Source of the DNA: Candidatus Thiodiazotropha sp. (ex Codakia rugifera)
GTDB taxonomy: Bacteria > Pseudomonadota > Gammaproteobacteria > Chromatiales > Chromatiaceae
Assembly: GCA_025656675.1 (NCBI GenBank)
Contig: JAHXHN010000003.1
Coordinates: 186,001-250,000, forward strand
Length of the DNA: 64,000 nucleotides
Reading direction: 5' to 3'
Shown here piece by piece: positions 5,519-19,804 of the stretch. The position numbers and the translations under genes were made by a program. Under the pieces are notes generated by a model. That model searched no databases. It was not told where the DNA came from and worked only from the letters and a program-made list of their open reading frames with translations. Positions within the stretch are counted from its first letter, which is position 1, and every line of letters starts with the position of its first letter.

Positions 5519-6422
5519 CATCCCTTTAAACAATCTTATTTTTCAGCATTATTCCCAATATGAGTTTAGAAATATTTCAGGTGATCAAAAACAATAGCTA
5601 GTTGTCGCTATAGGAGTTAATGAACAAGTTGCTTCAAAGCAACAGATCCTCATCGATACGATGAAAAACTGAAGCAGCATCAATGAGGCTGTTTGCAGTA
5701 AGGGCCGGTACGCCATAAACTTCGGCTGTAACGGCATAGTTACTTTTAATCTTTTTCAAAAGCAGATCGAAGTCTCCGTCACCCGATAGCAGTATTATTG
5801 TGTGTATCTCTTGCGCAGCTTCCAACACATCAATGGTGATGCCTACATCCCAATCACCTTTAGATGAACCATCACTACGTCGAATATAGGGCTTGAGTTT
5901 GACAGAAAAGCCAATATGCTTGAGTGCATCCTGGAATTTCAGCTGCTTCTCATCTCCACGATGTATAGCATAGGCAACAGCTGATACAATCTCTCCTTCC
6001 TTACTTACCTTTTTCCACAACTTTTTGTAATTAAACTGTCGCCCATAGGCTTGACGGGTTGTGTAGTAGATATTCTGCACATCAGCAAAGATTGCTATTT
6101 TCTTCACACGAATACCTCAAAATGCATCTGAAAATCCATGAACATCAATTCCGCAACTGTTAGTAAGATAGTCTAGTAATATACATTACATTAACTTATC
6201 TATGTATATTATTGTTTTTATTATATTATATATTACATTTAATCAAGAGGTATTTGGTCCTGCTGCACGCTACAACCACGCTCTCTTGTTGTTATAGTCT
6301 CATAACCTATTTGATAACAAAAAGTCCCATTAGCAGTGATTAAAAAACTTGAAATTTCTCATGACATCCACTCTATCAACAAACTTCTATCTCTATACTA
6401 ATCCTAACCATCTTTGAAGGGA
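5519..6422. repeat. Left copy of a long direct repeat flanking the island
   Basis: Bases 5519-6350 match 18815-19646 without a visible mismatch (832 bp, same orientation, constant offset 13,296). The next roughly 72 bp, to the shared CATCTTTGAAGGGAT ending at 6422, still align but with about nine substitutions. The repeat holds the complete NYN gene with its upstream AT-rich region. Outside it the two flanks are unrelated: before it lies the FAH gene, after it an IS21-type end remnant. Confidence 0.93.
5634..6107 (-). CDS. NYN-domain (LabA/DUF88-like) putative ribonuclease, copy 1
   Basis: 157-aa cytosolic protein with a PIN-like NYN fold, a family of metal-dependent RNases. Acidic residues expected at the active site are visible: D9 in IFADVQN, D85/D87/D93 in KGDWDVGITID, and D110/D112 in LLSGDGDFD. 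There is no extra DNA-binding or OST-HTH domain. The amino acid and nucleotide sequences are identical to the copy at 18930-19403. An AT-rich leader (6108-6260) probably carries the promoter. RNA target unknown; it could be a housekeeping nuclease at the ancestral locus or an island passenger. Confidence 0.88.
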   Translation of the reverse strand: MKKIAIFADVQNIYYTTRQAYGRQFNYKKLWKKVSKEGEIVSAVAYAIHRGDEKQLKFQDALKHIGFSVKLKPYIRRSDGSSKGDWDVGITIDVLEAAQEIHTIILLSGDGDFDLLLKKIKSNYAVTAEVYGVPALTANSLIDAASVFHRIDEDLLL

Positions 6423-6427
6423 TTAAG

Positions 6428-6516
6428 CTGCAGGCGCTGCACACAATTGACCACCCTGCTGGCAACAACTGACCACCTAAACCGGAAAGGACTGACCAGC
6501 CAGCTGCTATTGACCG
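6428..6516. mobile_element. IS21-type terminal repeat remnant (right-end type)
   Basis: An 89-bp stretch with the repeated TTGACC/TGACCACC/CTGACCAG words that I associate with ends of one IS21 subgroup. It aligns without gaps to 16632-16720 at roughly 80% identity by eye, in the same orientation. No transposase remnant adjoins it. It starts a few bases after the direct repeat ends, so it may mark the junction created when the island was assembled. Confidence 0.5.
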
Positions 6517-6599
6517 CATCAATGAGACTAATTACTCCCTGTATAAAGTAAGCGAATGGTTTCTCCCCTAAAATTCTACGGACACCTCCCGCCACCCAC

Positions 6600-7109
6600 T
6601 CAAGGCTTCTTCATTATCGGTGCATAATATTTGATAAAAGAACCAATATCCATTGCCATTATAAAATCACCAAAATCACTTTCATTACGCGGCAATTCAG
6701 GGTTCTCTCTCCATTGTTTTTCCCAAAGCTCTTTTTCACACATACTGGAGACATTCTCAATAATCTCAATGGTAAATGGCTCTAGAGATTCAATATCACC
6801 TCTAAATTTTCTTTTATACTTATATGTAAAGACATCTCGTAATTGCTGTTCAGGACTGAACTTTTCAACAGGAACATCAATCAAAGATGCAAAATAATTT
6901 AGTAATTTCTTCGCTTCTGGGTAGAACTTTTCATCCAAATGGCACCTTAATAAAGCATCATCAATTGGAGTATCCGTACGTAATTTAGCTCTTTGCTGAA
7001 TATTTTTTTTTGCTACAGATAATAATGCGCAAGTTCTTCTTGTACGCAATTTAACGTAAAACAAGCTAAAAATAACAACAAAGATAAAAGTAAGTAGAAT
7101 TAGTTCCAT
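6600..7109 (-). CDS. Putative membrane-anchored immunity protein for the adjacent Rhs tip
   Basis: 169 aa, unrecognised. One N-terminal membrane helix (about residues 3-20, LILLTFIFVVIFSLFYV) is followed by a basic stretch and a cytosol-type helical domain rich in charged residues (for example CEKELWEKQWRENPEL), ending in IKYYAPIMKKP. It starts 5 bp after the Rhs-tip stop, in the position where immunity genes sit. Immunity function is inferred only from that position and size. Confidence 0.5.
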   Translation of the reverse strand: MELILLTFIFVVIFSLFYVKLRTRRTCALLSVAKKNIQQRAKLRTDTPIDDALLRCHLDEKFYPEAKKLLNYFASLIDVPVEKFSPEQQLRDVFTYKYKRKFRGDIESLEPFTIEIIENVSSMCEKELWEKQWRENPELPRNESDFGDFIMAMDIGSFIKYYAPIMKKP

Positions 7110-7114
7110 ATACT

Positions 7115-7654
7115 TTATTTGCCACTCCTACACTCTACCCAACAACGACCGGTTGCCCCTATTGTATAACCAACTGCAAATGCAGCTGTAGCAGCGGCAG
7201 CCGTACCGTATCGGCCTAAACATTTAATACGCTGTACTTTACCAGCTCTTCGTACCTCTGGCCCCCAGTCTGGATTGGCACCCGGTAAATTTGGAAAACG
7301 ACGATCGATACTACCCCACATCGATGCATTAGGTCTGATTTGACTTGGTGTTTTTACTCCAAACAATGGCGCTCCAACACCAATCATAAACACAGGTAAG
7401 AGTGGATCTCTAGCCATACACGAAAGCCAACATTCACATTTTTCTCCACATTCTCCATCAGAATTCTCTTGACCCCATTGTCCTGGCCCACCCCAATAAC
7501 TATATAAACCTAAAGGATCTATTCCTATTAGTGGATTGCCTTTTACGTATGCGAATGTATTAATACTTCCATTCAAACCAATTGGGTCTGATTGAAGGTA
7601 ACGCCCTGTGCTTGGATCATAATCCCTAAAGTAGTTGTAAACTAATCCCTTTCC
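7115..7654 (-). pseudogene. Orphan Rhs C-terminal tip (core end plus variable toxin region)
   Basis: In frame directly after TGA 7655-7657 the translation reads [19 protein letters not shown], then [18 protein letters not shown], the end of an Rhs/YD-repeat core. About 125 variable residues follow (cysteine-rich [13 protein letters not shown], later [11 protein letters not shown]), which would be the polymorphic toxin domain; I do not recognise it. There is no core, no plausible ATG and no secretion region, so this is a displaced tip rather than an expressed full gene. TTG at 7576 could start a 153-aa product. A DNA stretch around NYFRDYDP is nearly the same as in the second tip at 18.0 kb. 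Confidence 0.75.
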
Positions 7655-7657
7655 TCA

Positions 7658-7891
7658 CTATTTCTTGTCTTTCGGTGGACATGGATCACCGCCATGGCTG
7701 TCGGAGTTTTGGATAGTGCCATCCTGTTTATGGATAACAAATTCTGAGTTTTGATTCCGACTGACATTTCTACCGTAATCAACTGCTTCTTGTTTTTTGT
7801 CAAAATGTTTTATTGACCGTTGACCACCTCCTTTTTTGACATCCCAACCACCATCGGAATTTGGAACTATATGGTGTGTTTTTCTTGGCAT
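7658..7891 (-). CDS. DUF2188 protein
   Basis: 77-aa basic cytosolic protein matching the DUF2188 pattern: HHIVPNSDGGWDVKKGG near the N terminus, a central SIKHFDKKQEAVDYGRNVS, and the typical tail VIHKQDGTIQNSDSHGGDP. Function of the family is unknown. It sits between the RES toxin gene and the Rhs tip; its stop TAG is followed in the same frame by TGA and then by the Rhs-tip coding frame. That junction suggests it belonged to an earlier toxin/immunity cassette, but this is inference. Confidence 0.8.
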   Translation of the reverse strand: MPRKTHHIVPNSDGGWDVKKGGGQRSIKHFDKKQEAVDYGRNVSRNQNSEFVIHKQDGTIQNSDSHGGDPCPPKDKK

Positions 7892-7931
7892 TACTTAATC
7901 CCCCAATAATGTAAATAATCAATAAGACTGC

Positions 7932-8471
7932 TCAATCTAACATATTGTTTTCCTCGCCCCATTTTACCCAATCCACTTCTTTATCATCAATCAATTCCAA
8001 TGCCTCTAAATGCATGATGTTGTCAGTGAAGATGATTAAATTTTCGCAATGCCATCGAGCAGAAGGAACTAGCAAACCATGAAAATCAAGAAATGCTGAA
8101 GCATGGCCAATCTTCTGCATTTTTTCATAATTCATCTGTTGGTATTCGTGGTCATGAATACCTAGTGATTCTAAATCTGTCCGAAGGATCCGCATGGACT
8201 GTGGCAAATCAGCCTTGATACGGCTTAATTTCGCTGGCTTTGACGGCCTGGGATTAAGCATCCCCCAGTGATAGGCCAATTCAGATATAGCTCCATCTTG
8301 TGTCAGAGACGTATAGAGTACATTCATCTCATTTCTTGGCATCCAACGGCCTCCATTACTGGAAGCAGCCAAAGGATCTAAATTTTCTCGCGTAGCCCTA
8401 AACACCTCGCCGTTAAAATGCGTGACCTCAAGATTCGATAATTTTTCTAACAGATCGGGATCATGTACCAT
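7932..8471 (-). CDS. RES-domain toxin of a RES-Xre toxin-antitoxin system
   Basis: 179 aa. RES toxins such as ParT, MbcT and Res degrade NAD+ or ADP-ribosylate targets when freed from their antitoxin. Visible signature residues: R25 in VFRATREN, GGRW at 40-43, Y53 and E64 in LYTS...ISELAYHWG, and S137 in LVPSARWHCENL, i.e. the Arg, Glu and Ser that name the family. The gene starts 10 bp after the antitoxin stop. The normal antitoxin-then-toxin order and short gap indicate one operon, presumably repressed by the antitoxin. All expected residues look intact. Confidence 0.87.
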   Translation of the reverse strand: MVHDPDLLEKLSNLEVTHFNGEVFRATRENLDPLAASSNGGRWMPRNEMNVLYTSLTQDGAISELAYHWGMLNPRPSKPAKLSRIKADLPQSMRILRTDLESLGIHDHEYQQMNYEKMQKIGHASAFLDFHGLLVPSARWHCENLIIFTDNIMHLEALELIDDKEVDWVKWGEENNMLD

Positions 8472-8481
8472 CCATTACTCT

Positions 8482-8820
8482 CTACAGGTATATTCCATCT
8501 CTAAGTTGATCCAGAATCTGCATCACTGTATCAGTATCACCTTCTTGAATAAGATCAACAGGCCTTTTGCCATCTAATACTCTTTGACGACTAAATAGCC
8601 ATACTCTAGCTTCCAGAGGCTCATAAAAGTCTGACAATTGATCCACAATATAATCGAGATCTAAAAGCAATTTTTCAGTATCACCTCTAGGAAATGCTTT
8701 TCCCTGATTCCAGCGCGATACAGTTTCAGGGCGGGTACCTAAAATATTGGCCACATCGGCTGACCGCATACCACCTTTCTCTTCAATGGATTCTATTTTT
8801 CGAGCAATCGCGTTACTCAT
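8482..8820 (-). CDS. Xre/MbcA/ParS-type antitoxin (DUF2384-like)
   Basis: 112 aa. The N-terminal half is an Xre-like helix-turn-helix (MRSADVANILGTRPETVSRW); the C-terminal half (YEPLEARVWLFSRQRVLDGK then PVDLIQEGDTDTVMQILDQL) is the MbcA/ParS toxin-binding region. It should bind its own promoter and neutralise the RES toxin encoded immediately downstream. It follows the 436-aa gene by 44 bp, so it may also be read from that gene's promoter. Confidence 0.87.
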   Translation of the reverse strand: MSNAIARKIESIEEKGGMRSADVANILGTRPETVSRWNQGKAFPRGDTEKLLLDLDYIVDQLSDFYEPLEARVWLFSRQRVLDGKRPVDLIQEGDTDTVMQILDQLRDGIYL

Positions 8821-8864
8821 TTTCTCACCATATTCATTTTAATCTCATCATATAAATAATTATT

Positions 8865-10175
8865 TCAGCTTCTTGCTGCTCTCATCTTGGGATGTAAAGC
8901 AAATGACTTTGGAGGATTTTTTTCAGAGTAATCCCCTAAAGCAATTCTCAACGTATCAAGATGCTTTCTATTTTTTTGCATCTTTTCCAAAACTTTTTTA
9001 TCCGGCCACTCGATTTGAGTAGCAGCCACTGCTTTATCAGTCGCGGGTCTCAGGTGCTGATCTAAAAACCGTTGCGGCCTTAATGTTTCAGGCATGCGGC
9101 TTAAACCGGCAACTTCATGCATTCTCTGGTAAAGGTAATGGCGCGTATGATTATGTAGCATATCTTTCGTGCCTCGAGGGCAACAGCGGGAATCAGTGCA
9201 AGCAAAATGAGCCTTTGCCCTTCTACTTGAAAGCAGAATCTCAGCTTCTTTAGACGGTAACATGGCATCGATTGATGGTACATAAATTAATCTTTTGCGC
9301 CCAAATTTACTGAGTTTACGAGGCTTCTTTAAATGCGATGTTTGAAAAGATTCATGTTGCATCACTCCATGCGCAATCCCTCCGACTGCCCCAAAAGCAA
9401 GAAGTGAAAGACCGAACATGCCACCCATATGGTTGGCTACTAAAGGAATATCCAATGCATGAAAATCCCTGGCGGCATCAATATAATTTCTTGCCGCATT
9501 GGCAGTACTATTTCTTCCAACACCATCAATAGATAGCCAAATAGAGCTCACCGGAAGCTGCCGAATACGATCAATCAAAGCGTTTCTTTCATCAAAGTTT
9601 CTAAAGAGCCTGTAGGGGATTGCCAAGGGCAGAATTAAAGGGACAGAAGAACAGCCAACCTTATCTAGTGCTGTTCGAAAATTACATACCGACTCAATAT
9701 CAATGTCCACCCAGGAATCATCGATATTTGAAATGTAATGAGATGGAGCCATGACTTGGGTAAATCCATGCTCACAAGCAAAAGCCGCTAAATCACCTAT
9801 TAATCTACGCCCCGATAGACCTTTGAAGTCATCCTCATTATGCGGTCTGTTTTTCCCCCAGGGCAGTGCACTAATGGCATCAGAGTAACCACCAGGTGTT
9901 GCCGATCTGACAGTGCCCGGATCCAAAACCGCATCCAATTTGTTCTCAAATATCTGCTCACGGAGCTCTGCGTGTCGATCCATTTTTGTAGGGTCAAAAA
10001 CAGCACCAAAAAAGGTCTTGTCACCGGTAGCCAACATATTGAGCAACGCTTTATGGTCATTGTATCCAGCATGTAGATACAAACCTAAGGGATCAGGTAC
10101 AGCCCGCACAATTCTTGGAAATTTATTTTTTGGCACATCTTTCATCGCAATAACCCTAAATTCACCATCTATCAC
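8865..10175 (-). CDS. Uncharacterised 436-aa protein, weakly TGT/DpdA-like
   Basis: Not confidently recognised. Alternating strands and helices with glycine turns suggest a TIM-barrel: FGAVFDPTKMDRH, LDAVLDPGTVRSATPGG, QVMAPSHYIS, SIWLSIDGVGR, and VANHMGGMFGLSLLAFGAVG followed by GIAHG. Near the C terminus, FACTDSRCCPRG (C326, C331, C332) and nearby histidines (341, 343, 346) could bind zinc. The combination recalls tRNA-guanine transglycosylases and their DNA-modifying relatives, but the match is by eye and weak. Start is GTG 10175, or ATG 10145, which has TTAGGG about 8 nt upstream. It precedes the RES-Xre pair on the same strand. Confidence 0.55.
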   Translation of the reverse strand: MIDGEFRVIAMKDVPKNKFPRIVRAVPDPLGLYLHAGYNDHKALLNMLATGDKTFFGAVFDPTKMDRHAELREQIFENKLDAVLDPGTVRSATPGGYSDAISALPWGKNRPHNEDDFKGLSGRRLIGDLAAFACEHGFTQVMAPSHYISNIDDSWVDIDIESVCNFRTALDKVGCSSVPLILPLAIPYRLFRNFDERNALIDRIRQLPVSSIWLSIDGVGRNSTANAARNYIDAARDFHALDIPLVANHMGGMFGLSLLAFGAVGGIAHGVMQHESFQTSHLKKPRKLSKFGRKRLIYVPSIDAMLPSKEAEILLSSRRAKAHFACTDSRCCPRGTKDMLHNHTRHYLYQRMHEVAGLSRMPETLRPQRFLDQHLRPATDKAVAATQIEWPDKKVLEKMQKNRKHLDTLRIALGDYSEKNPPKSFALHPKMRAARS

Positions 10176-10395
10176 ATAACCATATTATAGACATATTCAT
10201 TGACATTACAATATACATTCACACCCTACATTGGATAGGCATATATATAGACTAACGGTATTATAGATGCTCACATACGCCACTAGCGTATATTTTTCAG
10301 CCAGCAGCACCCACTCAAATAATAAGCATCAGTCAGTACTACGCATTCCTATTAATAATCAATAAGTTACACGCATTCCTGACTAAGTAATATTC
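10176..10395. other. AT-rich spacer after the recombinase operon
   Basis: About 220 bp between the tyrosine recombinase stop and the 436-aa gene start. It contains a perfect 6-bp inverted repeat ATACGC-CACTA-GCGTAT at 10275-10291 followed by ATTTTT, and the word ACGCATTCCT twice (about 10339 and 10372). It should contain the promoter of the leftward 436-aa gene and perhaps one end of the recombinase element; no end could be proved. Confidence 0.4.
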
Positions 10396-11340
10396 TTATA
10401 TTTCCTTCGCAGCCGGATGAGTCTCATAGTAAACCCTATTCAAATCCAGAATGGTCACATGAGCATAGATCTGGGTTGAAGAGATATCACTGTGCCCCAG
10501 CATCTCCTGGACCTGCCGGATATCAGCGCCATGTCGCAGCATTTCTGTTGCCGTCACATGGCGCAGCAGATGGCAGGCGCCTTTCTTGTCTATTCCTGAT
10601 CTGTCTATGCACTTGGTCACCATATCGGTGACTTTGTGGGGTTTCATTCGTTTACCTGCCTCGGTCAGAAATAACGCTTCTCCAGATGCTAGACACGCAA
10701 GTCTGAGGTGCAGCTCCTTCAGGTACCGCTCAACCCAGTCCAGAGCCCGACGCGCGATGGGGACATTTCGATCATTCTTGTTCTTACCTTCCCGCACCGT
10801 CAGAATCTGCCGCTGGAAATCAATATCTCGTACGTTCAAATTCACCAGCTCTATACGGCGGATCCCTGTGGCATAAAACACTTCAATGATTGCCCGGTTT
10901 CTGAGTCCCAACCGTCCCATAATTAGGGCCTGGTCCAGCACTCGTTCGATATCTTCAATCGTGGGAATGTCCTTGGGTAGCCGGCGCGGAATGCGGGGTA
11001 GCCTAAATTTCTTGGCAAAAGTGCCATCGATGACATCGTAGTAATCCATGGTTTTGACAAACTTGGTCACTGCCATCAACCGGGCACATTGGGTACTGAT
11101 ATCCAGTGGCTGCCCGTTGCGCTTACGGTACCGGTTGAGATAACGCCGGTACTTCTCAAGCACCAACAGATCCAACTCCTGAAGATCGTAAATGCCTTCA
11201 CTTGTGACCCACTCGATAAATCTTGCCAGCAGTAATCGCTTGGATTTCAGAGTGGAATTACTCTCACCCAGCGCCATGCAGTCCTCAAAGTAGAACTCGG
11301 CGCATTGGCCGAGTTCTCTGAGCTTCAGCTTCCTTCTCAA
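10396..11340 (-). CDS. Tyrosine recombinase/integrase
   Basis: 314-aa site-specific recombinase. Residues 1-110 are the SAM-like core-binding domain; the catalytic domain follows with R161 (YATGIRRIEL), K186 (EGKNKNDR), H257-x-x-R260 (HLLRH), H283 (LGHSDIS) and the nucleophile Y292 (IYAHV). All catalytic residues are present, so it is probably active. It is XerC/D-sized and could also be integron- or phage-integrase-like. Its ATG overlaps the stop of the toprim gene by 4 bp (11337-11340), so it is translationally coupled to the istA-istB-toprim operon rather than standing alone. Confidence 0.92.
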   Translation of the reverse strand: MRRKLKLRELGQCAEFYFEDCMALGESNSTLKSKRLLLARFIEWVTSEGIYDLQELDLLVLEKYRRYLNRYRKRNGQPLDISTQCARLMAVTKFVKTMDYYDVIDGTFAKKFRLPRIPRRLPKDIPTIEDIERVLDQALIMGRLGLRNRAIIEVFYATGIRRIELVNLNVRDIDFQRQILTVREGKNKNDRNVPIARRALDWVERYLKELHLRLACLASGEALFLTEAGKRMKPHKVTDMVTKCIDRSGIDKKGACHLLRHVTATEMLRHGADIRQVQEMLGHSDISSTQIYAHVTILDLNRVYYETHPAAKEI

Positions 11341-12572
11341 TGGACAGCTACACAGCTGTTTACAAAGGATATGGGTTCCGGAATGACATCGTAGTAATGC
11401 AGTCTTGCCAGCATCCGGGTAACCGCATCCATACGCTCAATCTGGGTAGTCAGCGAAATCACGTTATCTGTGAAGACATTTTTTTCACTCTGCAGGTATT
11501 GCTGATAGGACTCAAGCACAGTGGTGGTTAAATCTGCAACATCTTCAACCTCAATGATATGGCAATAGTCCAGGAATCGCTCAAGATGGATACGGCTGGC
11601 ATTCAGTGTTCGGTAAGACTTTCCAGCATGTCGCGCCTCTTCCAAGTAGAACTGAATACAATCTTCCAGCGTTCCTAACTGCACCAACCAACGATCCATC
11701 ACACCGGGGACCAGCTTGCCATAGCATTGTTTAAAGGGCACAGCTTCATCCATAAGTCGATTGAAGGCACCCACCACATCCGTTTGTGTCATCGCAAAGT
11801 GATTTACATCCTGACCCGTTGGTGGCTTGATGCGATAACATTGAATACCCATAGCATCCAAAGCCTGTGCCACCAACAGTGCATAGCGATTAGCGGACGG
11901 GGTATTATCGAATGCCACAAAGACACGACTAACCCCATCTTCATGCAATCGCGATAGTTGGACCTCATTAAATCCCTGTGTACCCATCGTGGCGACAACA
12001 TTATTAAAGCCTGCCGTTAGCAGCGTTAAGACATCCAGGGCACTTTTACACAGTATTAGCGATTTGGGTAACCGCTGATCGGTAGCGTTAAAAAGTGATA
12101 CCCGCTGCGCATTCCAATAAAGATGATAAGCAGGTTTTCGCCGCTGGTGTCGGGGACGCCGGCCATAGGCCCCGATAATCTGACCATCATTATTGCAGTA
12201 GGGTATCACCAATGCACCACGAAAGAATTCATGCCCCGAGTCCTTGAGCAATCCCAGTCGCTGTAAATGACCTCGATTCCGGGAACCTAAAAGGCATTTC
12301 GGTGACTTCAGTTCATAACCCAAGGTTCTGTCTGCAAAACCAATATGGAAGTTCTCAATATAGCTGGGATCCACTTTCCGGCTGACTAGCATCTTCGCCA
12401 GTTTAGGTTGTAGCTTGAGCGTATTGTGGTAGTGTTTGAAGACCTGGTCGATAATAAGCAGATCCGGATTATGGGCATTATCCACCTCACCAAGAAGGTC
12501 TTGTTGGAGGTGAACAAAACTCTTCGACTGTATCGCGCTTTTGTTTCCGTTCGTATTGTTCGTCTTATACAT
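11337..12572 (-). CDS. DnaG-like toprim protein with a C-terminal recombinase core-binding domain
   Basis: 411 aa in two parts. Residues about 35-265 resemble the N-terminal/toprim half of DnaG primase: MLVSRKVDPSYIENFHIGFA, FRGALVIPYCNNDGQIIGAY, LILCKSALDVLTLLTAGFNN, VATMGTQGF, VFVAFDNTPSANRYA, GQDVNHFA. There is no zinc-binding N terminus. The usual toprim Glu aligns with K176 and the DxD motif is D222-N-T224, so catalysis is doubtful. Residues about 297-400 form a SAM-like domain alike to the N-terminal domain of the next gene's recombinase (shared YYDVI). AAGGAGG lies 5 nt before the ATG, 9 bp after the istB stop. Function unknown; a DNA-binding accessory factor is one possibility. Confidence 0.72.
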   Translation of the reverse strand: MYKTNNTNGNKSAIQSKSFVHLQQDLLGEVDNAHNPDLLIIDQVFKHYHNTLKLQPKLAKMLVSRKVDPSYIENFHIGFADRTLGYELKSPKCLLGSRNRGHLQRLGLLKDSGHEFFRGALVIPYCNNDGQIIGAYGRRPRHQRRKPAYHLYWNAQRVSLFNATDQRLPKSLILCKSALDVLTLLTAGFNNVVATMGTQGFNEVQLSRLHEDGVSRVFVAFDNTPSANRYALLVAQALDAMGIQCYRIKPPTGQDVNHFAMTQTDVVGAFNRLMDEAVPFKQCYGKLVPGVMDRWLVQLGTLEDCIQFYLEEARHAGKSYRTLNASRIHLERFLDYCHIIEVEDVADLTTTVLESYQQYLQSEKNVFTDNVISLTTQIERMDAVTRMLARLHYYDVIPEPISFVNSCVAVH

Positions 12573-12581
12573 AGGGCCTCC

Positions 12582-13316
12582 TTAAACTGATTTTTTCAGT
12601 TTGCGCATAGATTCACCACGCAATTGGATCTTGTGAGAACGATGTAGAATCCGGTCCAAGAGGGCATCAGCGATAGTGGGTTCGCCAAAGTACTCATGCC
12701 ACTGATCTACAGGCAATTGAGATGTGATCAGAATGGATCCAGAACCGATACGATCATCGATCAGCTCAAGCAACTCGTGCCGCCCTCTCTTAGTTATGGG
12801 GGCAAGTGCCCAATCATCCAGGATAATGAGATCCAGTTTTGCCAGTTTTGCCCGCACTTTCGTCAGACTGCCATCTCTATAGGCGATTTCAAGTTCTTCC
12901 AGGAGGCGAGACAGCCGTTTGTAGATTACCGACATCCCCTTCCGGGCAGCCTGCTGACCCAGGGCACAGGCAATCCACGTCTTACCAACACCAGTCGGAC
13001 CGGTGATAATGGTGTTGAGTGATTTGGAGATCCAGTCGCATGTAGTCAAGTTGGAGAAAACCTGCCGATCAAGCCCTCTAGAAGTTGAGAAATCGATATC
13101 TTCCGGACAAGCCTGCACTTTGAGTTTTGCCTGCCGGAGTAAGCGTGTCAGACGACGGTCTTCACGGTGATGGCGCTCCGCATCCACACACATCCCGAGC
13201 CTCTCCTCAAAACTCAACTCCTGTAAACTGGTATTCACACGCATCTCTTCCAGCATATTAACTATGCCGTGAAGTTTCATCTCTTTGAGATCTTGAATTG
13301 TCTGTTGAATAAGCAT
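12582..13316 (-). CDS. istB: IS21-family helper ATPase IstB
   Basis: 244-aa AAA+ ATPase (DnaC/DnaA-like) that assembles on target DNA and activates the IstA transposase. The frame is open from 13364, but ATG 13316 is preferred: MLIQQTIQDLKEMKLHG is the usual IstB beginning and GGAGG lies about 9 nt upstream. In the open-frame numbering Walker A is GPTGVGKT (122-129) and Walker B LIILDDW (179-185). The end SHKIQLRGESMRK is typical. It begins 1 nt after the istA stop. Full length and apparently intact. Confidence 0.93.
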   Translation of the reverse strand: MLIQQTIQDLKEMKLHGIVNMLEEMRVNTSLQELSFEERLGMCVDAERHHREDRRLTRLLRQAKLKVQACPEDIDFSTSRGLDRQVFSNLTTCDWISKSLNTIITGPTGVGKTWIACALGQQAARKGMSVIYKRLSRLLEELEIAYRDGSLTKVRAKLAKLDLIILDDWALAPITKRGRHELLELIDDRIGSGSILITSQLPVDQWHEYFGEPTIADALLDRILHRSHKIQLRGESMRKLKKSV

Positions 13317-13317
13317 T

Positions 13318-14856
13318 TTATTGCCCTCCATTCGCGTAGTACTCAGCTCCACGAAGGTTGTCATGGAGCGGCAAATTCACTTGGATAGAGAGTGGTTCAT
13401 CTCGCTGTGATTCCAGGCCACGCTGTAGAATGGAACGAATACTTTTCACTGTTGGAGAATCAATCTGCTGTGCACGCCGGCATGCTGCCTCAAAGCGCTC
13501 ATGGCCGTAGTCCTTAGCAAGACGCCGTAATGAAGCGCTTGCCCGAATAGCCAATAGTGCATGGGGACGACTATCAAATTGCTGCTGGACAACCGCTCCG
13601 GCTGCTGGCCCTATGGACCGAGCCCACTTGATGATCAATTCTGGAGTCTGCTCGGCATAGCGGCGATGTGCCGTAGGCTGGTGTTCGGGGTTGGTGGTAT
13701 GTCCACCAACCTCATGGCATCGAGGATGACTGGCTACTCTCCTTCCCTTGTGGAAAAGTTCCACGACATTCGCGGTCACTCTTGCTTCTATACGCGAACC
13801 CACAAGGGCATGGGGAACCGAATAGTAATGGTCACGGACACGCACATGGTAGTCAGGCCCAAGCTTGTGTGCAGAAGTCCATTCTGCATATTCGAAAGGT
13901 TCTGCAGGCAGTGGGCGCAGAAGGGGCTTATCCAGTTCTTCAAATCGTGAGCGTCTGCATCCAGGCAGCCTTTTAAATGGCCTTTCAATAAATAGTTTGA
14001 GCATTTCGGCAATGGCCGCATTGATCTCTTCTATGCTGAAAAATTTTCGATGCCGGAGACGGGCCAAAATCCAACGGTATGCTAATTTGACGGTTAGTTC
14101 TGCTTTTGCTTTATCTTTCGGGCGACGAACACGAGCGGGTACTATCACCACCTGATAGTGCTTCGCCATTTCGAGGTAGGTACGGTTGAGTACTGGCTCA
14201 CGTCCAGCACGGATCACAGCAGACTTCAGATTGTCTGGTACTACGACTTGTGTTGTCCCTCCAAAAAACTGGAACATCTGATTATGCGCCTCGACCCAGT
14301 ACGGAAGGGCTTGAGATTTGACAGCATAGGCAAATGGATAACTTGAGCAAGCAATTACGCCTACAAATAGCTGGGCTTGCCTCTCCTCACCTGAGTGCAC
14401 ATCAAAATAAGGTATAGTACGCCCGGCAAAATCGACAAAAGTGCACTCTCCTGCACGGTGATCTTGCCGCATGGTGAGATCCAATTTACCCAGGTATTGG
14501 CGATAGTAGTGTGTAAACTGCGAATAGGCATAGGCATGACTCGGATTGGCCATTCGATACTCTTCCCAGAGGAGTTGCAGTGTCACGCCTCGACATTGCA
14601 TTTCACGATGAACTGCTACTAAATCTGGCATGACTTTGTGTTGAACCCTGGATTTTTTTGACATCAGCAAATCCTCGAGCTGAGCATCATCCATGTCAAT
14701 TATTAAAGACCAATCAAGGCCCGCTTTAGCAATACGATTCCGGTAGCGACGAATGGTGTTGTGTGCCAAATTAATTGCCCGACCTATCATCCGGTTGGAC
14801 ATTCTTGTGGTCGTGATCAACCTCAATGCTTCTCTCTGTTTATTCATGGTTATCAA
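13318..14856 (-). CDS. istA: IS21-family transposase IstA
   Basis: 512-aa DDE transposase. N-terminal helix-turn-helix (residues about 17-45, MIGRAINLAHNTIRRYRNR), then a second helical DNA-binding region, then the RNase H fold with D142 (FVDFAG), D208 (VPDNLK) and E253 (DKAKAEL) as the presumed catalytic triad. A C-terminal beta-barrel-like part includes DHYYSVPHALVG. Length is usual for IS21 (about 500 aa). No frameshift or internal stop. First gene of a four-gene unit with istB, the toprim protein and the recombinase. The ends of the element were not found. Confidence 0.93.
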   Translation of the reverse strand: MITMNKQREALRLITTTRMSNRMIGRAINLAHNTIRRYRNRIAKAGLDWSLIIDMDDAQLEDLLMSKKSRVQHKVMPDLVAVHREMQCRGVTLQLLWEEYRMANPSHAYAYSQFTHYYRQYLGKLDLTMRQDHRAGECTFVDFAGRTIPYFDVHSGEERQAQLFVGVIACSSYPFAYAVKSQALPYWVEAHNQMFQFFGGTTQVVVPDNLKSAVIRAGREPVLNRTYLEMAKHYQVVIVPARVRRPKDKAKAELTVKLAYRWILARLRHRKFFSIEEINAAIAEMLKLFIERPFKRLPGCRRSRFEELDKPLLRPLPAEPFEYAEWTSAHKLGPDYHVRVRDHYYSVPHALVGSRIEARVTANVVELFHKGRRVASHPRCHEVGGHTTNPEHQPTAHRRYAEQTPELIIKWARSIGPAAGAVVQQQFDSRPHALLAIRASASLRRLAKDYGHERFEAACRRAQQIDSPTVKSIRSILQRGLESQRDEPLSIQVNLPLHDNLRGAEYYANGGQ

Positions 14857-15021
14857 TTCCTATCAATAGGGACAGCAAGCCATTTCGGGCTGGCCAATAG
14901 ATGGAAATTCAAGGTGTAAGGTGACCTGTCGGTTGGCCTAGAAAGCCAACAACACTTGACAGATCGCAGATGAGGATCGATACTTGGGACATCGAGGTTA
15001 CACTTCGATACACCAAGAGAA

Positions 15022-15055
15022 AGGCTTGAGAGTTGCAACCTCTCAGGCCTTTTTC
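15022..15055 (+). terminator. Terminator-like hairpin upstream of istA
   Basis: AGGCTTGAGAG (15022-15032) pairs with CTCTCAGGCCT (15040-15050) except for one position, with a 7-nt loop and a run of T directly after. Reading rightward it resembles an intrinsic terminator. It may insulate the element, or, read leftward, fold in the istA leader. A second hairpin, GTTGGC/GCCAAC, lies at 14932-14950. Confidence 0.5.
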
Positions 15056-15151
15056 GTTTCCCTGCTCTGTATTCACACATGCTTGTACTGAATTAGATAC
15101 TCGCTGTCACGCTACGCCATATTTTTCTCCTCTTTTTGCTGGTCGTGCTAG

Positions 15152-15412
15152 TTAATTGTCCACACGGTTTCTTTGTTCGGCGAGCCAGGCCGCAACATCC
15201 TTTGCTAAAGCAAACTTACCTCGACGATTTGGCAGAGAAAAAACGTGCACAGGTACTTTGTTCCGCGCAACTGCCTGACGCAATGCTTCGAGACTTGGAT
15301 ACCCAAGCGCTTTACGTAGCGAATTGCTTGTTAAGAGAGGCCCATACTCCCGTAACAGATCCGCTTCTAACGCTTTTTCTAAATCTGAGACTTGTTCGAT
15401 TCTATTTTTCAT
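15152..15412 (-). CDS. Small putative DNA-binding protein (86 aa)
   Basis: 86 aa with a helical, winged-helix-like look: ADLLREYGPLLTSNSLRKAL, then LGYPSLEALRQAVARNKVPV, then NRRGKFALAKDVAAWLAEQR. The pattern of a hydrophobic gate motif followed by a basic RRGKFAL and WL is like AlpA/excisionase-type or plasmid-borne regulators; this is by-eye similarity only. It is transcribed away from the 319-aa gene, with phased GTTAC repeats between them, so it is a candidate for the regulator binding those repeats. Confidence 0.6.
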   Translation of the reverse strand: MKNRIEQVSDLEKALEADLLREYGPLLTSNSLRKALGYPSLEALRQAVARNKVPVHVFSLPNRRGKFALAKDVAAWLAEQRNRVDN

Positions 15413-15476
15413 CGTGATAAATCGTGACTACCCCTGACAATAAAATATTAGGATAGGGGCCTAACTCCTACCAGTA

Positions 15477-15546
15477 GTAACATAATTGGTTATTTCGTTA
15501 CTCTAAAAATATACTATTATCGTTACTATATGTAACAGAGCGTTAC
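15477..15546. promoter_or_regulatory. Phased GTTAC/GTAAC operator or iteron cluster
   Basis: Five copies of GTTAC or its complement: GTAAC 15477-15481, GTTAC 15497-15501, GTTAC 15522-15526, GTAAC 15532-15536 and GTTAC 15542-15546. Start-to-start distances are 20, 25, 10 and 10 bp. The third and fourth form a perfect GTTAC-N5-GTAAC palindrome. The cluster fills the divergent gap between the 86-aa and 319-aa genes. The near-helical phasing suggests cooperative binding by one protein; autoregulation is inferred. Confidence 0.6.
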
Positions 15547-15581
15547 TACAACAGGTTTTGGTGACTGAGTGACAATTTTCT

Positions 15582-16541
15582 ATGGAAAAAACTGCTGGAA
15601 GACCACCCAACAAGAGCCCTATCAAGCCTCTCAGAGTGAAGAGTTGGTTCTACTATGTGGCCGCACGATTAGATCTAAAGCGCACAGGATATGCACTTGA
15701 GAGTTACTTAGAGCAGGAAAAGGTCAAACGAAATCACGAAGGAACTGTCAACCGTCCCTGCAAATACGACAGATATAAAAAAGGCCTGCATATTCCTGAG
15801 CTAACCTTGGTAGATAGAGTTGAGGATATTGTGCCAGGATCGAAGAGCCTCCTAAATCACCCTTTTTGGGAGGTGGCCAATCCTATTGAAGACATTGCTG
15901 AATTATATGTACATCTGAATAAACTCAGTCCTGAAGTCGTGAATCTTTTATTTCACCCTGGTACTGAGCCAGGAAAAATTCCAATCCGTCATCGACAAGA
16001 CTATATAACCACTCTAGAAACCTTATCAGAAATTGCTGATCTGGATGCCTTTGCAGCCCTTATTGGTCTTCACCAAGAAGATATCCTTACCAACACATTT
16101 AAATCTCCTATGCTACATATTCTTTATATGAAGCCACTGTTAACTGCATTCAGAAAACTGATTTCTCAACCGCTATTTCCCGATATCGCTGATGAACTCT
16201 TCGAATATATAACTACCACATTATTCTCTGAACTAAAAAGTGAAACCGCTGATAAGCTCATTACTAAGATGAATATTAGCCAAGCAATCGACTACTCACG
16301 CTTTCTGTTATCGATAGTAGATAAATTAGAAATACTACAAAAATACACTTACCCACCTGTATCATGCATGCACATCATCAATCGCTACATGACTAAAAAT
16401 ATTTTAGCCATAGCCTTTGCAAATGATTCAGATAAGGATTGGCTTGCGTTTAAAAGGCTTCCAGAAATTAAAAACTTAACGAAAACCCTTAAGAGATGGG
16501 AGTTAAAACAAACTAATTTTTCTCCAATCCCATGGTCCTGA
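15582..16541 (+). CDS. Uncharacterised island protein (319 aa)
   Basis: I do not recognise this protein. Basic N terminus (GRPPNKSPIKPLRVKSWFYY), then RPCKYDRYKKGLHIPE, which looks like a nucleic-acid-contact loop, then an all-helical region without membrane segments or catalytic motifs. No Walker, HNH or DDE signature. ATG 15582 has only a weak upstream GAG. It is divergent from the 86-aa gene and ends where the MITE-like IS21 remnant begins. Base composition is clearly more A/T-rich than the core genes, consistent with acquisition. Confidence 0.6.
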   Translation: MEKTAGRPPNKSPIKPLRVKSWFYYVAARLDLKRTGYALESYLEQEKVKRNHEGTVNRPCKYDRYKKGLHIPELTLVDRVEDIVPGSKSLLNHPFWEVANPIEDIAELYVHLNKLSPEVVNLLFHPGTEPGKIPIRHRQDYITTLETLSEIADLDAFAALIGLHQEDILTNTFKSPMLHILYMKPLLTAFRKLISQPLFPDIADELFEYITTTLFSELKSETADKLITKMNISQAIDYSRFLLSIVDKLEILQKYTYPPVSCMHIINRYMTKNILAIAFANDSDKDWLAFKRLPEIKNLTKTLKRWELKQTNFSPIPWS

Positions 16542-16722
16542 CTGGTCAACAGCAGTTTGCTGGTCAGTAAATATCGGATTAACTTGTCAGAGTTAAACAG
16601 CGAAGGTGGTCAATTCAACCGGAATCACCAGTTGCAGGCGCTGCACCGAATTGACCGCCCTGCTGGTGAGGGTTGACCACCTAAACCGGAGAAGGCTGAC
16701 CAGGGCGCTGCTGTTGACCGGC
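16540..16722. mobile_element. MITE-like IS21-end pair (non-autonomous remnant)
   Basis: Inverted terminal segments: CTGGTCAACAGCAG...GCTGGTCAG at 16542-16567 and its imperfect reverse complement CTGACCAG...CTGCTGTTGACCGG at 16696-16721. Inside are further inverted words (AGGTGGTCAA near 16604 versus TTGACCACCT near 16673). Together they look like the left and right ends of an IS21-type element brought together with the interior lost. No coding capacity. Confidence 0.55.
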
Positions 16723-16938
16723 TGCACGCACATTCCAGAGTAAATTGCAGTCTTCGTTGAAATGAACTACAACGCGAAACCAAAATTCACTGCAGAGCAC
16801 ACTGGAACCTTTAGTTGATAGTACGATTGTTGATGCCAATGTCGCAACAAAATTGAAATATATGATAATTATTTAAGTGTTCATAATATTAGCATTGGCG
16901 CCAACTTATATTATGAAGCTTTAATAAACACGTGGGAA
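16723..16938. other. A/T-rich spacer with no supported gene
   Basis: Lies between the MITE-like remnant and the putative immunity gene. No ORF with a start signal, no hairpin followed by T-run, and no similarity to the neighbouring repeats was seen. Confidence 0.4.
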
Positions 16939-17439
16939 TTATTCACTACAAGTACTCAATGCTCCATATCCGCATATTCCTTCTAATAGTAGAAAACTTT
17001 TGCTCTCTCGAGCTTTTTCGGATATAGCCAGTAGTCCCCTTTCATATGAGAAAAGGAACTCCTGCACATATTTATCATCTTGCTGAAAACTTGCTTTTAT
17101 AAGCATCACGTCAGGTATTGTTTGACCAAAGACCTTCAGCATTTTTGTGGTTTCAACCGTGTAGTCAACCTTATTTTTAGTCCACTTACTCTTTTCTCCT
17201 GGTATTCTAGGTATTGAGAAAGAGATAAGGCCACTCATCAAACAGATGTAACTTGCATCTTCACAAGAAAACCATGTAAATTCTCTATGATTTAGACTGA
17301 TCTTATTTGACGATTCGATAACTAAAACATGTTCTTCATCAGAAGGAATGTAACCCCTATAAATCCAAGAAGATGCGTTCACATGAAATGACACAAAAAG
17401 TACTGCAATAGCATAATATCTTTTATTAATCATTGGCAT
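16939..17439 (-). CDS. Exported protein, putative immunity to the metallopeptidase Rhs tip
   Basis: 166 aa with a signal peptide (residues 1-22, [16 protein letters not shown] then SSW), so probably periplasmic. The mature part is beta-rich with several cysteines ([12 protein letters not shown] near 59-70 and [14 protein letters not shown] at the end). It overlaps the toxin-tip frame by 10 bp. Its place directly after the toxin and its export suggest it neutralises the peptidase in the periplasm; this is inferred from position only. Family not recognised. Confidence 0.55.
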
Positions 17440-18092
17440 AATGAACGACCATTCGTCAAGGCATCAAGTATGTATGCTTCCATTTGATTTGCAGCTGCTT
17501 CATTAGGATTATTCCCAAATTTTTGCCGAACATCTACAACACCAGGCAACATGTGTCCATATTCGTGAACAGCAGTATTTCTTGGAGCAGAAAAAGCTTC
17601 ATTATAGAAAACAGTAGTACCACCTGTTGCACTATTTCCGATCACATCATATGGTGTAAAAACGGGTCTTTGATAATTTATGTGTGTTTCAGCTGCTTTA
17701 TTAACTCCATCTGACATTGAAATTTTTACGATCCAATTGTCATATATATTTTGTAACATCTCTTTGCATTCACAATCAGTTTCAGAGTCGATAGCATTCT
17801 CTAGTTGCCTAGCAATATCCCAAAGAATATTCTCTCGAACTCTTCTCGTTTTCCCTTCAGGGGTTCGATAGTATGCAGCTGTGTCACTAAATGTTGCTCC
17901 TCTGTATGTTACAACATTAAATAATCCAAATGGATCCATTCGTAATAATGGGTTCCCACCAACATAGGCATATGTATTTAGTCCTCCTCCCAGCCCAATA
18001 GGATCGGACTCCAGGTACCTCCCCGTGTTTGGATCATAATCCCTAAAGTAGTTGTAATAATTCCCGGTTTCCTGATCGAAGTACTGCCCCGG
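17430..18092 (-). pseudogene. Orphan Rhs tip with a HExxH zinc-metallopeptidase toxin domain
   Basis: The frame opens right after TAA 18093-18095 with [20 protein letters not shown], then [11 protein letters not shown] and [12 protein letters not shown], the Rhs core end. From ATG 17939 a 169-aa product would start at MDPFGLF. The variable domain contains [12 protein letters not shown] (H125, E126, H129 from that Met), a zinc peptidase motif, with [11 protein letters not shown] behind it supplying a likely third ligand (E147). The rest of the Rhs protein is missing, so this is a displaced toxin cassette, usable only after recombination onto a full rhs gene or if expressed alone. Confidence 0.78.
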
Positions 18093-18814: not shown

Positions 18815-19718
18815 CATCCCTTTAAACAATCTTATTTTTCAGCATTATTCCCAATATGAGTTTAGAAATATTTCAGGTGATCAAAAACAATAGCTAGTTG
18901 TCGCTATAGGAGTTAATGAACAAGTTGCTTCAAAGCAACAGATCCTCATCGATACGATGAAAAACTGAAGCAGCATCAATGAGGCTGTTTGCAGTAAGGG
19001 CCGGTACGCCATAAACTTCGGCTGTAACGGCATAGTTACTTTTAATCTTTTTCAAAAGCAGATCGAAGTCTCCGTCACCCGATAGCAGTATTATTGTGTG
19101 TATCTCTTGCGCAGCTTCCAACACATCAATGGTGATGCCTACATCCCAATCACCTTTAGATGAACCATCACTACGTCGAATATAGGGCTTGAGTTTGACA
19201 GAAAAGCCAATATGCTTGAGTGCATCCTGGAATTTCAGCTGCTTCTCATCTCCACGATGTATAGCATAGGCAACAGCTGATACAATCTCTCCTTCCTTAC
19301 TTACCTTTTTCCACAACTTTTTGTAATTAAACTGTCGCCCATAGGCTTGACGGGTTGTGTAGTAGATATTCTGCACATCAGCAAAGATTGCTATTTTCTT
19401 CACACGAATACCTCAAAATGCATCTGAAAATCCATGAACATCAATTCCGCAACTGTTAGTAAGATAGTCTAGTAATATACATTACATTAACTTATCTATG
19501 TATATTATTGTTTTTATTATATTATATATTACATTTAATCAAGAGGTATTTGGTCCTGCTGCACGCTACAACCACGCTCTCTTGTTGTTATAGTCTCATA
19601 ACCTATTTGATAACAAAAAGTCCCATTAGCAGTGATTAAAAAACTTCAAATTTCTCATGACATCCACTCTATCAACGAACGACTATCCTTATACTGATTC
19701 CAACCATCTTTGAAGGGA
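18815..19718. repeat. Right copy of the long direct repeat flanking the island
   Basis: Bases 18815-19646 are identical to 5519-6350; 19647-19718 are the diverged tail matching 6351-6422 with about nine substitutions. The sharp change from perfect to about 87% identity suggests gene conversion or a recent crossover within an older duplication. Confidence 0.93.
18930..19403 (-). CDS. NYN-domain (LabA/DUF88-like) putative ribonuclease, copy 2
   Basis: 157 aa, identical in protein and DNA to the gene at 5634-6107, including D9, D85/D87 and the SGDGDFD motif, and with the same upstream 240 bp, so both copies should be expressed from the same kind of promoter. Downstream of this copy is the four-helix membrane protein gene rather than the FAH hydrolase. 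Confidence 0.88.
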   Translation of the reverse strand: MKKIAIFADVQNIYYTTRQAYGRQFNYKKLWKKVSKEGEIVSAVAYAIHRGDEKQLKFQDALKHIGFSVKLKPYIRRSDGSSKGDWDVGITIDVLEAAQEIHTIILLSGDGDFDLLLKKIKSNYAVTAEVYGVPALTANSLIDAASVFHRIDEDLLL

Positions 19719-19804
19719 TGAACCCATAAAAACAAAAAATAGATCCTATAGACGTCAATGCTCAAAGGCGATAATGCATATGATCTACTGCGCCAACTTA
19801 ATGG

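What the first reader, a model, noticed from the sequence alone, without database searches (positions are those of the whole stretch)
10396..14856. Four-gene operon joining an IS21 transposition module to a toprim protein and a tyrosine recombinase
istA, istB, a DnaG-like toprim protein and a tyrosine recombinase follow each other with junctions of +1, +9 and -4 nt, and the toprim gene has AAGGAGG in the junction. Known IS21 elements carry istA/istB only. Two complete DNA-moving machineries in one transcript suggest either a hybrid element that transposes by IstAB and resolves cointegrates or circles by the recombinase, or an element captured by another. I do not recognise it as described.
Basis: partly seen in the sequence, partly recalled or inferred. 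Interest (0 to 1): 0.8.

Follow-up and report, generated by a model that had tools for sequence, protein, structure and literature searches.

The report
IS21-type transposon with recombinase and cargo
The four genes belong to one large jumping element of the IS21 type that also carries a second recombinase, a disabled primase and toxin genes (defence genes in a relative), a bigger and more complex kind of element than the two-gene IS21 insertion sequences in the textbooks.

Summary
The operon is real: istA, istB, a DnaG-like toprim gene and a tyrosine recombinase, junctions +1, +9, -4, in a Ca. Thiodiazotropha genome. The order occurs at six loci in all. One, in plasmid pPUV-2, has a clean empty site: a 24,686-bp insertion with TG...CA multi-repeat ends and a 6-bp target duplication brings all four genes plus defence cargo (Lamassu, AbiEi). 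Ends of the same family bound a 10,202-bp element here (6429-16630), whose L-end, the weaker one, abuts a neighbouring element's R-end across 2 bp, as in IS21 tandems; a sister species shows the same junction.

The toprim-recombinase pair is usually seen without istAB, with an active-looking primase, often in Rhs toxin arrays including those of E. coli. In istAB-linked proteins that reach the toprim domain its catalytic glutamate is gone (0 of 4 keep it, against 23 of 23 elsewhere); two more have lost the domain.

Best reading: an IS21-type cargo transposon that captured a Rhs-associated recombinase module, perhaps twice. The recombinase's job (resolving tandems or cointegrates, or exchanging cargo) is inferred, not shown.

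The parts
6429..6519 (+). R-end of the element (tip TGCAGGCGCTGCAC..., interior to the right), multi-repeat IS21-type end
   Evidence: HMM from the two pPUV-2 ends alone: E=4.7e-07 in 534 kb; HMM of six ends without any window end: E=4.8e-22 in 224 kb
6600..7109 (-). cargo: putative immunity gene next to the probable Rhs tip
   Evidence: position only; no Pfam or NCBIfam match
7115..7576 (-). cargo: probable orphan Rhs C-terminal tip
   Evidence: Rhs_assc_core E=0.0059, below its cut-off; no Pfam match; repeat of the segment at 17918
7932..8471 (-). cargo: RES-domain toxin gene
   Evidence: RES 3.6e-14
8482..8820 (-). cargo: Xre/MbcA/ParS antitoxin
   Evidence: PF09722 7.5e-09
8865..10175 (-). 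cargo: 436-aa protein of unknown family
   Evidence: no match; 91% identical in L078
10396..11340 (-). REC, XerC-like tyrosine recombinase with intact catalytic residues
   Evidence: NF002331 3.7e-96, below its cut-off; residues aligned over 23 proteins
11337..12572 (-). TOP, DnaG-like protein with degenerate toprim and a fused recombinase core-binding domain
12582..13316 (-). istB, AAA+ helper ATPase
   Evidence: PF01695 4.5e-76
13318..14856 (-). istA, DDE transposase, nearest among ordinary insertion sequences to ISPpu7 and IS1491
   Evidence: NF033546 3.7e-70; D, D, E aligned with IS5376 IstA; 47.8% to ISPpu7
14857..15151 (-). leader of istA with a terminator-like hairpin and a GTCAAG box shared by most P86-istAB loci
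15152..15412 (-). P86, small gene shared by a wider group of IS21-type units
15582..16541 (+). P319, divergent gene of unknown function
   Evidence: conserved in L078 at 48%
16538..16630 (-). L-end of the element (tip TGGTGATTCCGG..., interior to the left)
   Evidence: HMM of six ends without any window end: E=3.1e-09; not found by the pPUV-2-only HMM at E<=5
16631..16632 (.). 2-bp spacer (GT) between the abutted ends
   Evidence: the same 2-bp spacing (AT) in L078 1021-1022
16633..16723 (+). R-end of the neighbouring element
   Evidence: pPUV-2-only HMM E=1.1e-04; six-end HMM E=4.3e-20
16939..17939 (-). neighbour's cargo: second probable Rhs tip and putative immunity gene
   Evidence: position and repeat D2; no family match
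5519..6426 (.). 908-bp direct repeat with a NYN gene, left copy (right copy 18815-19722, 98.9%)

Best explanation
Window 6429-16630 is one IS21-type transposon carrying cargo. Shown: ends of one multi-repeat family enclose P319, P86, istA, istB, TOP, REC, a RES/Xre toxin-antitoxin pair and a probable Rhs tip; a relative in pPUV-2 (24,686 bp) inserted as one unit with TG...CA ends and a 6-bp target duplication. Inferred: IstA pairs the ends, IstB captures target DNA, and the element inserts, here head-to-tail next to another element's end, as IS21 makes tandems. Inferred: the TOP-REC pair was captured from Rhs-linked primase-recombinase units; REC resolves tandems, cointegrates or circles and/or exchanges cargo beside itself; TOP has lost primase activity and serves as REC's DNA-binding partner.
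For: pPUV-2 against pPUV-4: 100% identical flanks of 17,446 and 5,898 bp around a single insertion, ends and duplication. End profile from pPUV-2 alone found in window, L078, G003 and G004, best match in 19 further loci E=2.2; other profiles. Abutted ends with 2-bp spacer in window and L078. Four-gene order at six loci. Catalytic residues of IstA and REC intact in the window. Loss of toprim catalytic residues in the istAB-linked proteins. Cargo P436 and Xre less diverged at fourfold sites than istA, istB, TOP, REC (67% and 83% against 36-49%), as cargo exchange predicts. Defence cargo in pPUV-2: LmuA, LmuB, AbiEi.
Against: No empty site or target duplication was found for the window's own element. 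Its L-end is the weakest end and is missed by the pPUV-2-only profile; four of the six ends in the other profile were themselves found through their likeness to window sequence, so that test is not fully independent. Ends were not found for the G173 and Alteromonas loci, and the L-end of G003 is unclear. No recombination site for REC was identified. RES, beside P436 and Xre, is hardly less diverged than the core (52%). The G003 recombinase lacks the histidine of HxxR.
Confidence: 0.74

Rival explanations
1. Chance neighbourhood: a plain IS21 element landed upstream of a Rhs-associated TOP-REC pair and only looks like one operon.
For: The pair was mostly seen without istAB. In Caballeronia an IS21 pair lies between TOP and REC on the opposite strand (L035), so such landings happen.
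Against: Same order and same strand at six loci; in pPUV-2 one insertion event brought all genes; in the end searches nothing beyond noise lies between istB and REC (a match inside TOP of pPUV-2 has E=0.56 or worse).
Confidence: 0.06
2. The recombinase is the mover: a site-specific integrative element whose att sites are the repeats, with istAB as passenger or helper.
For: Direct repeats flank the unit; istAB-free relatives are found as small circular records and repeating units.
Against: The flanking sequences belong to inverted multi-repeat ends like IS21's, and pPUV-2 shows a short target duplication in an ordinary coding sequence, which a tyrosine recombinase does not make (established knowledge).
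Confidence: 0.1
3. The transposon is real but TOP and REC are decaying passengers without a role in movement.
For: Toprim catalytic residues lost, TOP shortened to 160-165 aa in two loci, HxxR histidine lost in G003; P86-istAB units without a visible TOP-REC pair exist.
Against: REC keeps its catalytic residues in the other five loci and stands at the end of the operon in all six; 88.5% protein identity to L078 with 46% identity at fourfold sites points to purifying selection.
Confidence: 0.2

Closest known systems
IS21 family (IS5376, ISPpu7, IS1491)
   Same: IstA with DDE residues, IstB, ends made of several direct repeats, terminal TG...CA, short target duplication (in pPUV-2), tandem-like junction
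   Different: 10 to 25 kb instead of about 2.5 kb (recalled size), extra gene P86, TOP-REC pair, cargo
P86-istA-istB units on plasmids (Azospira, Rms149, pSE5369-VIM, Xanthomonas, Comamonas)
   Same: P86, istA, istB; mostly a divergent gene upstream; some defence-type neighbours
   Different: no TOP-REC pair seen in the fetched stretches; only Comamonas matches the end profile
Rhs-associated CHC2 primase-XerC units (E. coli, Lonsdalea, P. aeruginosa pPA1609; also Leptospira without Rhs)
   Same: same recombinase family and the same DnaG-like partner
   Different: no istAB; long primase with intact toprim glutamate; none of the end motifs in the loci searched
Tn3-family transposons with a tyrosine recombinase (TnpI type, recalled; Tn6772/Tn6773 with XerC-like recombinase, passages of PMC7371123)
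   Same: transposase plus tyrosine recombinase in one transposon
   Different: unrelated transposase; no IstB, no DnaG-like protein (recalled)
Tn7, Mu, Tn5053 (recalled; IstB is compared with MuB and TnsC in passages of PMC10122671)
   Same: DDE transposase with AAA+ target-capture partner and cargo
   Different: different genes; no XerC-like recombinase with toprim partner (recalled)

Membership tests
IS21 family | istA and istB in order, same strand | tested here: met
IS21 family | catalytic D, D, E of IstA | tested here: met
   alignment to 8q4d, (residue roles recalled)
IS21 family | terminal inverted ends made of several direct repeats with TG...CA tips | tested here: met
   pPUV-2, window and L078; the window L-end is the weaker one
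IS21 family | short target duplication (5 bp for IS5376 in PMC10122671; 4-8 bp recalled) | tested here: inconclusive
   met in pPUV-2: 6 bp, or 8 if the ends are read without CA; no empty site for the window element
IS21 family | only two open reading frames between the ends | tested here: not met
   window element 10,202 bp with at least ten genes; pPUV-2 24,686 bp; so filed as an IS21-type transposon, not as an IS21 insertion sequence
IS21 family | forms tandems with abutted ends | tested here: met
   head-to-tail junctions with 2-bp spacer in window and L078; that they arose by tandem formation is inferred
Transposons with tyrosine-recombinase cointegrate resolution | tyrosine recombinase with intact catalytic residues in the element | tested here: met
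   activity not tested
Transposons with tyrosine-recombinase cointegrate resolution | resolution site inside the element | tested here: inconclusive
   no convincing site found
Rhs-associated CHC2 primase-XerC units | CHC2 zinc finger and toprim catalytic residues | tested here: not met
Rhs-associated CHC2 primase-XerC units | recombinase over the NF002331 cut-off (371 bits) | tested here: not met
   322.3 bits

The most novel reading that the evidence does not exclude
A distinct class of IS21-derived transposons uses IstAB to jump and pile up head-to-tail, and a captured XerC-like recombinase with a retired primase as its DNA-binding partner to take the piles apart again and swap cargo, so that one element shuttles Rhs toxin tips and another anti-phage systems.
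Probability: 0.4. Interest if true: 0.8.

Novelty: new variant of a known kind. Interest (0 to 1): 0.68.

Why it matters
The IS21 family is described as two genes between two ends (PMC10122671, passages). Here the same machinery carries 10 to 25 kb with toxin-antitoxin, probable Rhs tip or defence genes, and has merged with a recombinase module that otherwise is often found in Rhs arrays. This gives a concrete, testable route for moving toxin tips and defence systems. The loss of primase catalytic residues in the istAB-linked proteins is a natural experiment on what that partner protein still does for a recombinase.

Tried and rejected
Reading the 81% direct repeats at 6426 and 16630 as att sites of the recombinase was my first idea (note); I dropped it when pPUV-2 ends of the same kind proved to be inverted transposon ends with a target duplication. 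Empty site for the window through the NYN repeat: 2 of 39 other genomes gave short matches (269 and 342 bp, 66-69%), which I did not follow further. Viral contigs with the recombinase: none (one scan, close relatives only). Phage records with the toprim protein: none at 1e-8. Alteromonas: a related plasmid shares the RHS gene but is not an empty site. Comamonas: other plasmids share only the right flank; I fetched two longer stretches but did not compare them. pSE5369-VIM against pPUV-4: only the left junction seen, right end not located. Recombination site by conserved repeats: nothing convincing. Rfam on the istA leader: one match below its gathering score, taken as chance. Leader fold: z -2.35, -0.61 and -4.87 in window, L078 and L033, so not uniformly more stable than shuffled sequence. 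P86 structure: mean pLDDT 52.4, not usable. IstA tree: long branches of L132 and L077 make it uninformative about common origin.

Literature (open-access library only, ten searches): no paper held all of IS21, tyrosine recombinase, toprim, istB; none held three of polymorphic toxin, XerC, CHC2, toprim; three held Rhs, orphan, tyrosine recombinase, immunity (passages of one seen); none held CdiA, XerC, orphan, integrase; one held IS21, tandem, istA, istB, cointegrate (listing only); three held IS21 family, passenger genes, transposon, tyrosine recombinase (passages of two); 27 held three of IS21, circular intermediate, istB, tandem, ten listed (passages of three); 20 held three of Rhs, C-terminal displacement, primase, recombinase, twelve listed (passages of one); seven held three of Rhs, XerC, DNA primase, orphan (passages of one); none held IS21-like, cargo, defense systems, transposon. 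In these I saw no description of this combination; that is not proof that none exists.
Full report
1. What is there. The window is G000:C3:186001-250000. Its genus is that of Candidatus Thiodiazotropha: the same-genus genome G018 holds the match on a contig of the same length and position as the named record JAHXIP010000018. The four ORFs are at the stated places with the stated junctions and families. Upstream of istA lie P86 (86 aa) and, divergent, P319; downstream of REC lie P436, an Xre/RES toxin-antitoxin pair and a probable orphan Rhs tip, whose Rhs match is below its cut-off.

2. The same order elsewhere. istA-istB-TOP-REC in one direction was found at six loci: the window; G018 (L032/L078); P. 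aeruginosa plasmid pPUV-2, with 100% copies in two further plasmid records (L033); G003 (L039); G173 (L077); and an Alteromonas plasmid (L132). P86 was found in four of these six: window, L078, L033, L039. In an even draw of 369 genomes of the class, 19 have a TOP match at E<=1e-10, the window's own genome included. I looked at stretches of 14 of these 19; istAB precedes TOP in 2 (G000 and G173) and was not seen in 12, several of which sit on contigs that end close upstream or hold only a fragment of TOP. The other five (G164, G264, G304, G372, G390) were not examined; they are weaker matches (E 1e-10 to 1e-15) in frames of 558-637 aa and are probably chromosomal primase (inference). Recombinases over the NF002331 cut-off occur in 8 of 369 genomes, all among the 19. 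So the pair is a unit in its own right, mostly without istAB in what I saw.

3. The ends. pPUV-2 and pPUV-4 are identical over 17,446 bp left and 5,898 bp right of one insertion, with an 8-bp overlap. Reading the ends as TG...CA gives L TGTAGGGGC..., R TGTAGGGAC..., a 24,686-bp element and a 6-bp duplication AGGGGG; without the CA the duplication is 8 bp and the insert 24,684. The insert splits a coding sequence that is 1056 bp long in pPUV-4. Its cargo includes LmuA (1.8e-57), LmuB (1.2e-145) and AbiEi (5.5e-60).

4. The ends in the window. The pPUV-2 end sequence matches the window repeats. A profile made from the two pPUV-2 ends alone was run on 533,861 bases: window, L078, G003, G004, G173 and 19 further loci (18 controls and the Alteromonas locus). 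It finds window 6429 (4.7e-07), G004 (2.4e-05), window 16634 (1.1e-04), L078 (3e-04) and the G003 R-end (5.8e-04), then a second G003 end (0.021) and the L078 L-end (0.038); the best match in the 19 further loci is E=2.2. It does not find the window's L-end at E<=5. A profile of six ends without any window end, run on 224,001 bases that include those six ends, finds window 6429 (4.8e-22), 16633 (4.3e-20) and 16626 minus (3.1e-09); four of those six ends (L078 two, G003, G004) were first noticed through likeness to window sequence, so this test is less independent than the first. In direct comparison the window's L-end resembles its own R-end and L078's L-end (0 of 500 shuffles as good, each) and the pPUV-2 L-end less clearly (6 of 500). 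The element is thus 6429-16630, 10,202 bp.

5. Tandem junction. At 16630/16633 the L-end of this element meets the R-end of another, head-to-tail, with GT between; L078 shows R 1020 and L 1023 with AT between. In G003 an R-type end also lies upstream of the operon (19597 of the joined stretch, E=6.7e-09), but no matching L-end was recognised there. IS21 is known for (IS)2 tandems (PMC9330008, passages), and abutted ends with a short spacer are the reactive junction in the IS3, IS30, IS21 and IS256 families (PMC3299598, passages); a spacer of 2-3 bp for IS21 itself is recalled, not read. The neighbour has a different probable Rhs tip, so the array grew by insertion of different elements or by tandem formation followed by divergence (inference).

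6. TOP and REC. REC keeps R, K, HxxR, H and Y; of 23 aligned recombinases (22 different) all do except G003, which has Q for the first H of HxxR. TOP aligned over 28 rows (several rows are copies from one genome or near-identical records): the catalytic glutamate is present in 23 of 23 rows not in an istAB operon and in 0 of 4 istAB-linked rows that reach the domain (window, L078, L033, L039); the DxD pair in 22 of 23 against 0 of 4. The fifth istAB-linked row, L077, ends before the domain. L132 fell below the score cut for this alignment; it is 164 aa and matches only residues 19-139. Alignment to solved DnaG places K on the glutamate and D-N-T on DxD (residue roles recalled). The core-binding domain at TOP's C-terminus is found in window and L078 only (E about 1e-18; next best 0.03). 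In the recombinase tree the istAB label needs two changes, in 0 of 200 bootstrap trees one: five istAB-linked rows form a supported clade (98/96) and G003 pairs with the istAB-free G227 (92/90, below the tool's strong level); the strongly supported branches alone force only one change.

7. Cargo moves on its own. Between window and L078, fourfold-site identity is 36-49% for istA, istB, TOP and REC and 27% for P86, against 67% for P436 and 83% for Xre (47 sites); RES (52%) and P319 (44%) do not stand out. DNA identity steps from 73% (10391-16719) to 87% (7932-10248) just downstream of REC. This suggests exchange of cargo at that point, by REC or by homologous recombination.

8. Wider picture. 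P86 with istAB but no TOP-REC pair seen in the fetched stretch occurs on plasmids with various neighbours: Azospira (a Shedu nuclease gene nearby), Rms149, pSE5369-VIM, Xanthomonas, Comamonas. Only the Comamonas stretch matches the end profile. TOP-REC without istAB occurs in Rhs or two-partner toxin arrays: in E. coli as repeating units of about 8.8 kb, in pPA1609 as a partly duplicated unit, and on small circular records of Shigella and Lonsdalea; the Leptospira plasmid copy shows no Rhs gene in its stretch. A 2012 survey noted XerC/D genes next to polyimmunity loci (PMC3482391, passages). Bacteroidales rAID arrays pair a tyrosine recombinase with orphan immunity genes (PMC12247911, passages).

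9. Verdict. One IS21-type cargo transposon with a captured recombinase module; a new variant of a known kind. Shown: unit structure and insertion in pPUV-2; ends, abutted junction and gene content here. Inferred: IstAB movement of the window copy, REC's role, TOP's role, the capture.

Noticed in passing
L112 7120-21125 and L113 11158-25163 (E. coli); L110 (Shigella, 8758-bp circle): A CHC2 primase and XerC-like recombinase sit between Rhs pieces in repeating units of about 8.8 kb; a circular Shigella record matches one such unit. 44 of 5426 E. coli genomes hold a place covering at least 80% of that record.
   Followed up: partly
L111 14576-18356 and 22755-26493 (pPA1609): A 3.8-kb stretch with immunity gene, VbhA, HTH and the first part of the CHC2 gene is repeated at 95.5%, with XerC, a toxin-antitoxin pair and a C39 peptidase gene between the copies.
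   Followed up: partly
window 5519-6426 and 18815-19722: A 908-bp direct repeat with an NYN gene (98.9%) flanks the array; its origin is unexplained.
   Followed up: partly
window 14857-15151; L078 2499-2775; L033 3364-3627: The istA leader has a terminator-like hairpin (8 of 9 aligned loci, judged by eye) and a GTCAAG box (7 of 9; TGTCAAG in 5).
   Followed up: partly
L146 15410-20865 (Azospira plasmid): Helicase, AAA ATPase and Shedu nuclease genes lie beyond a P86-istA-istB unit, as if cargo.
   Followed up: no
L127 15528 (G004): A lone end of the same family; none of the ten window genes used as queries has a relative within the 35 kb fetched.
   Followed up: partly
L035 8573-10970 (Caballeronia): An IS21 pair lies between TOP and REC on the opposite strand, which looks like an ordinary insertion and contrasts with the operon studied here.
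   Followed up: no
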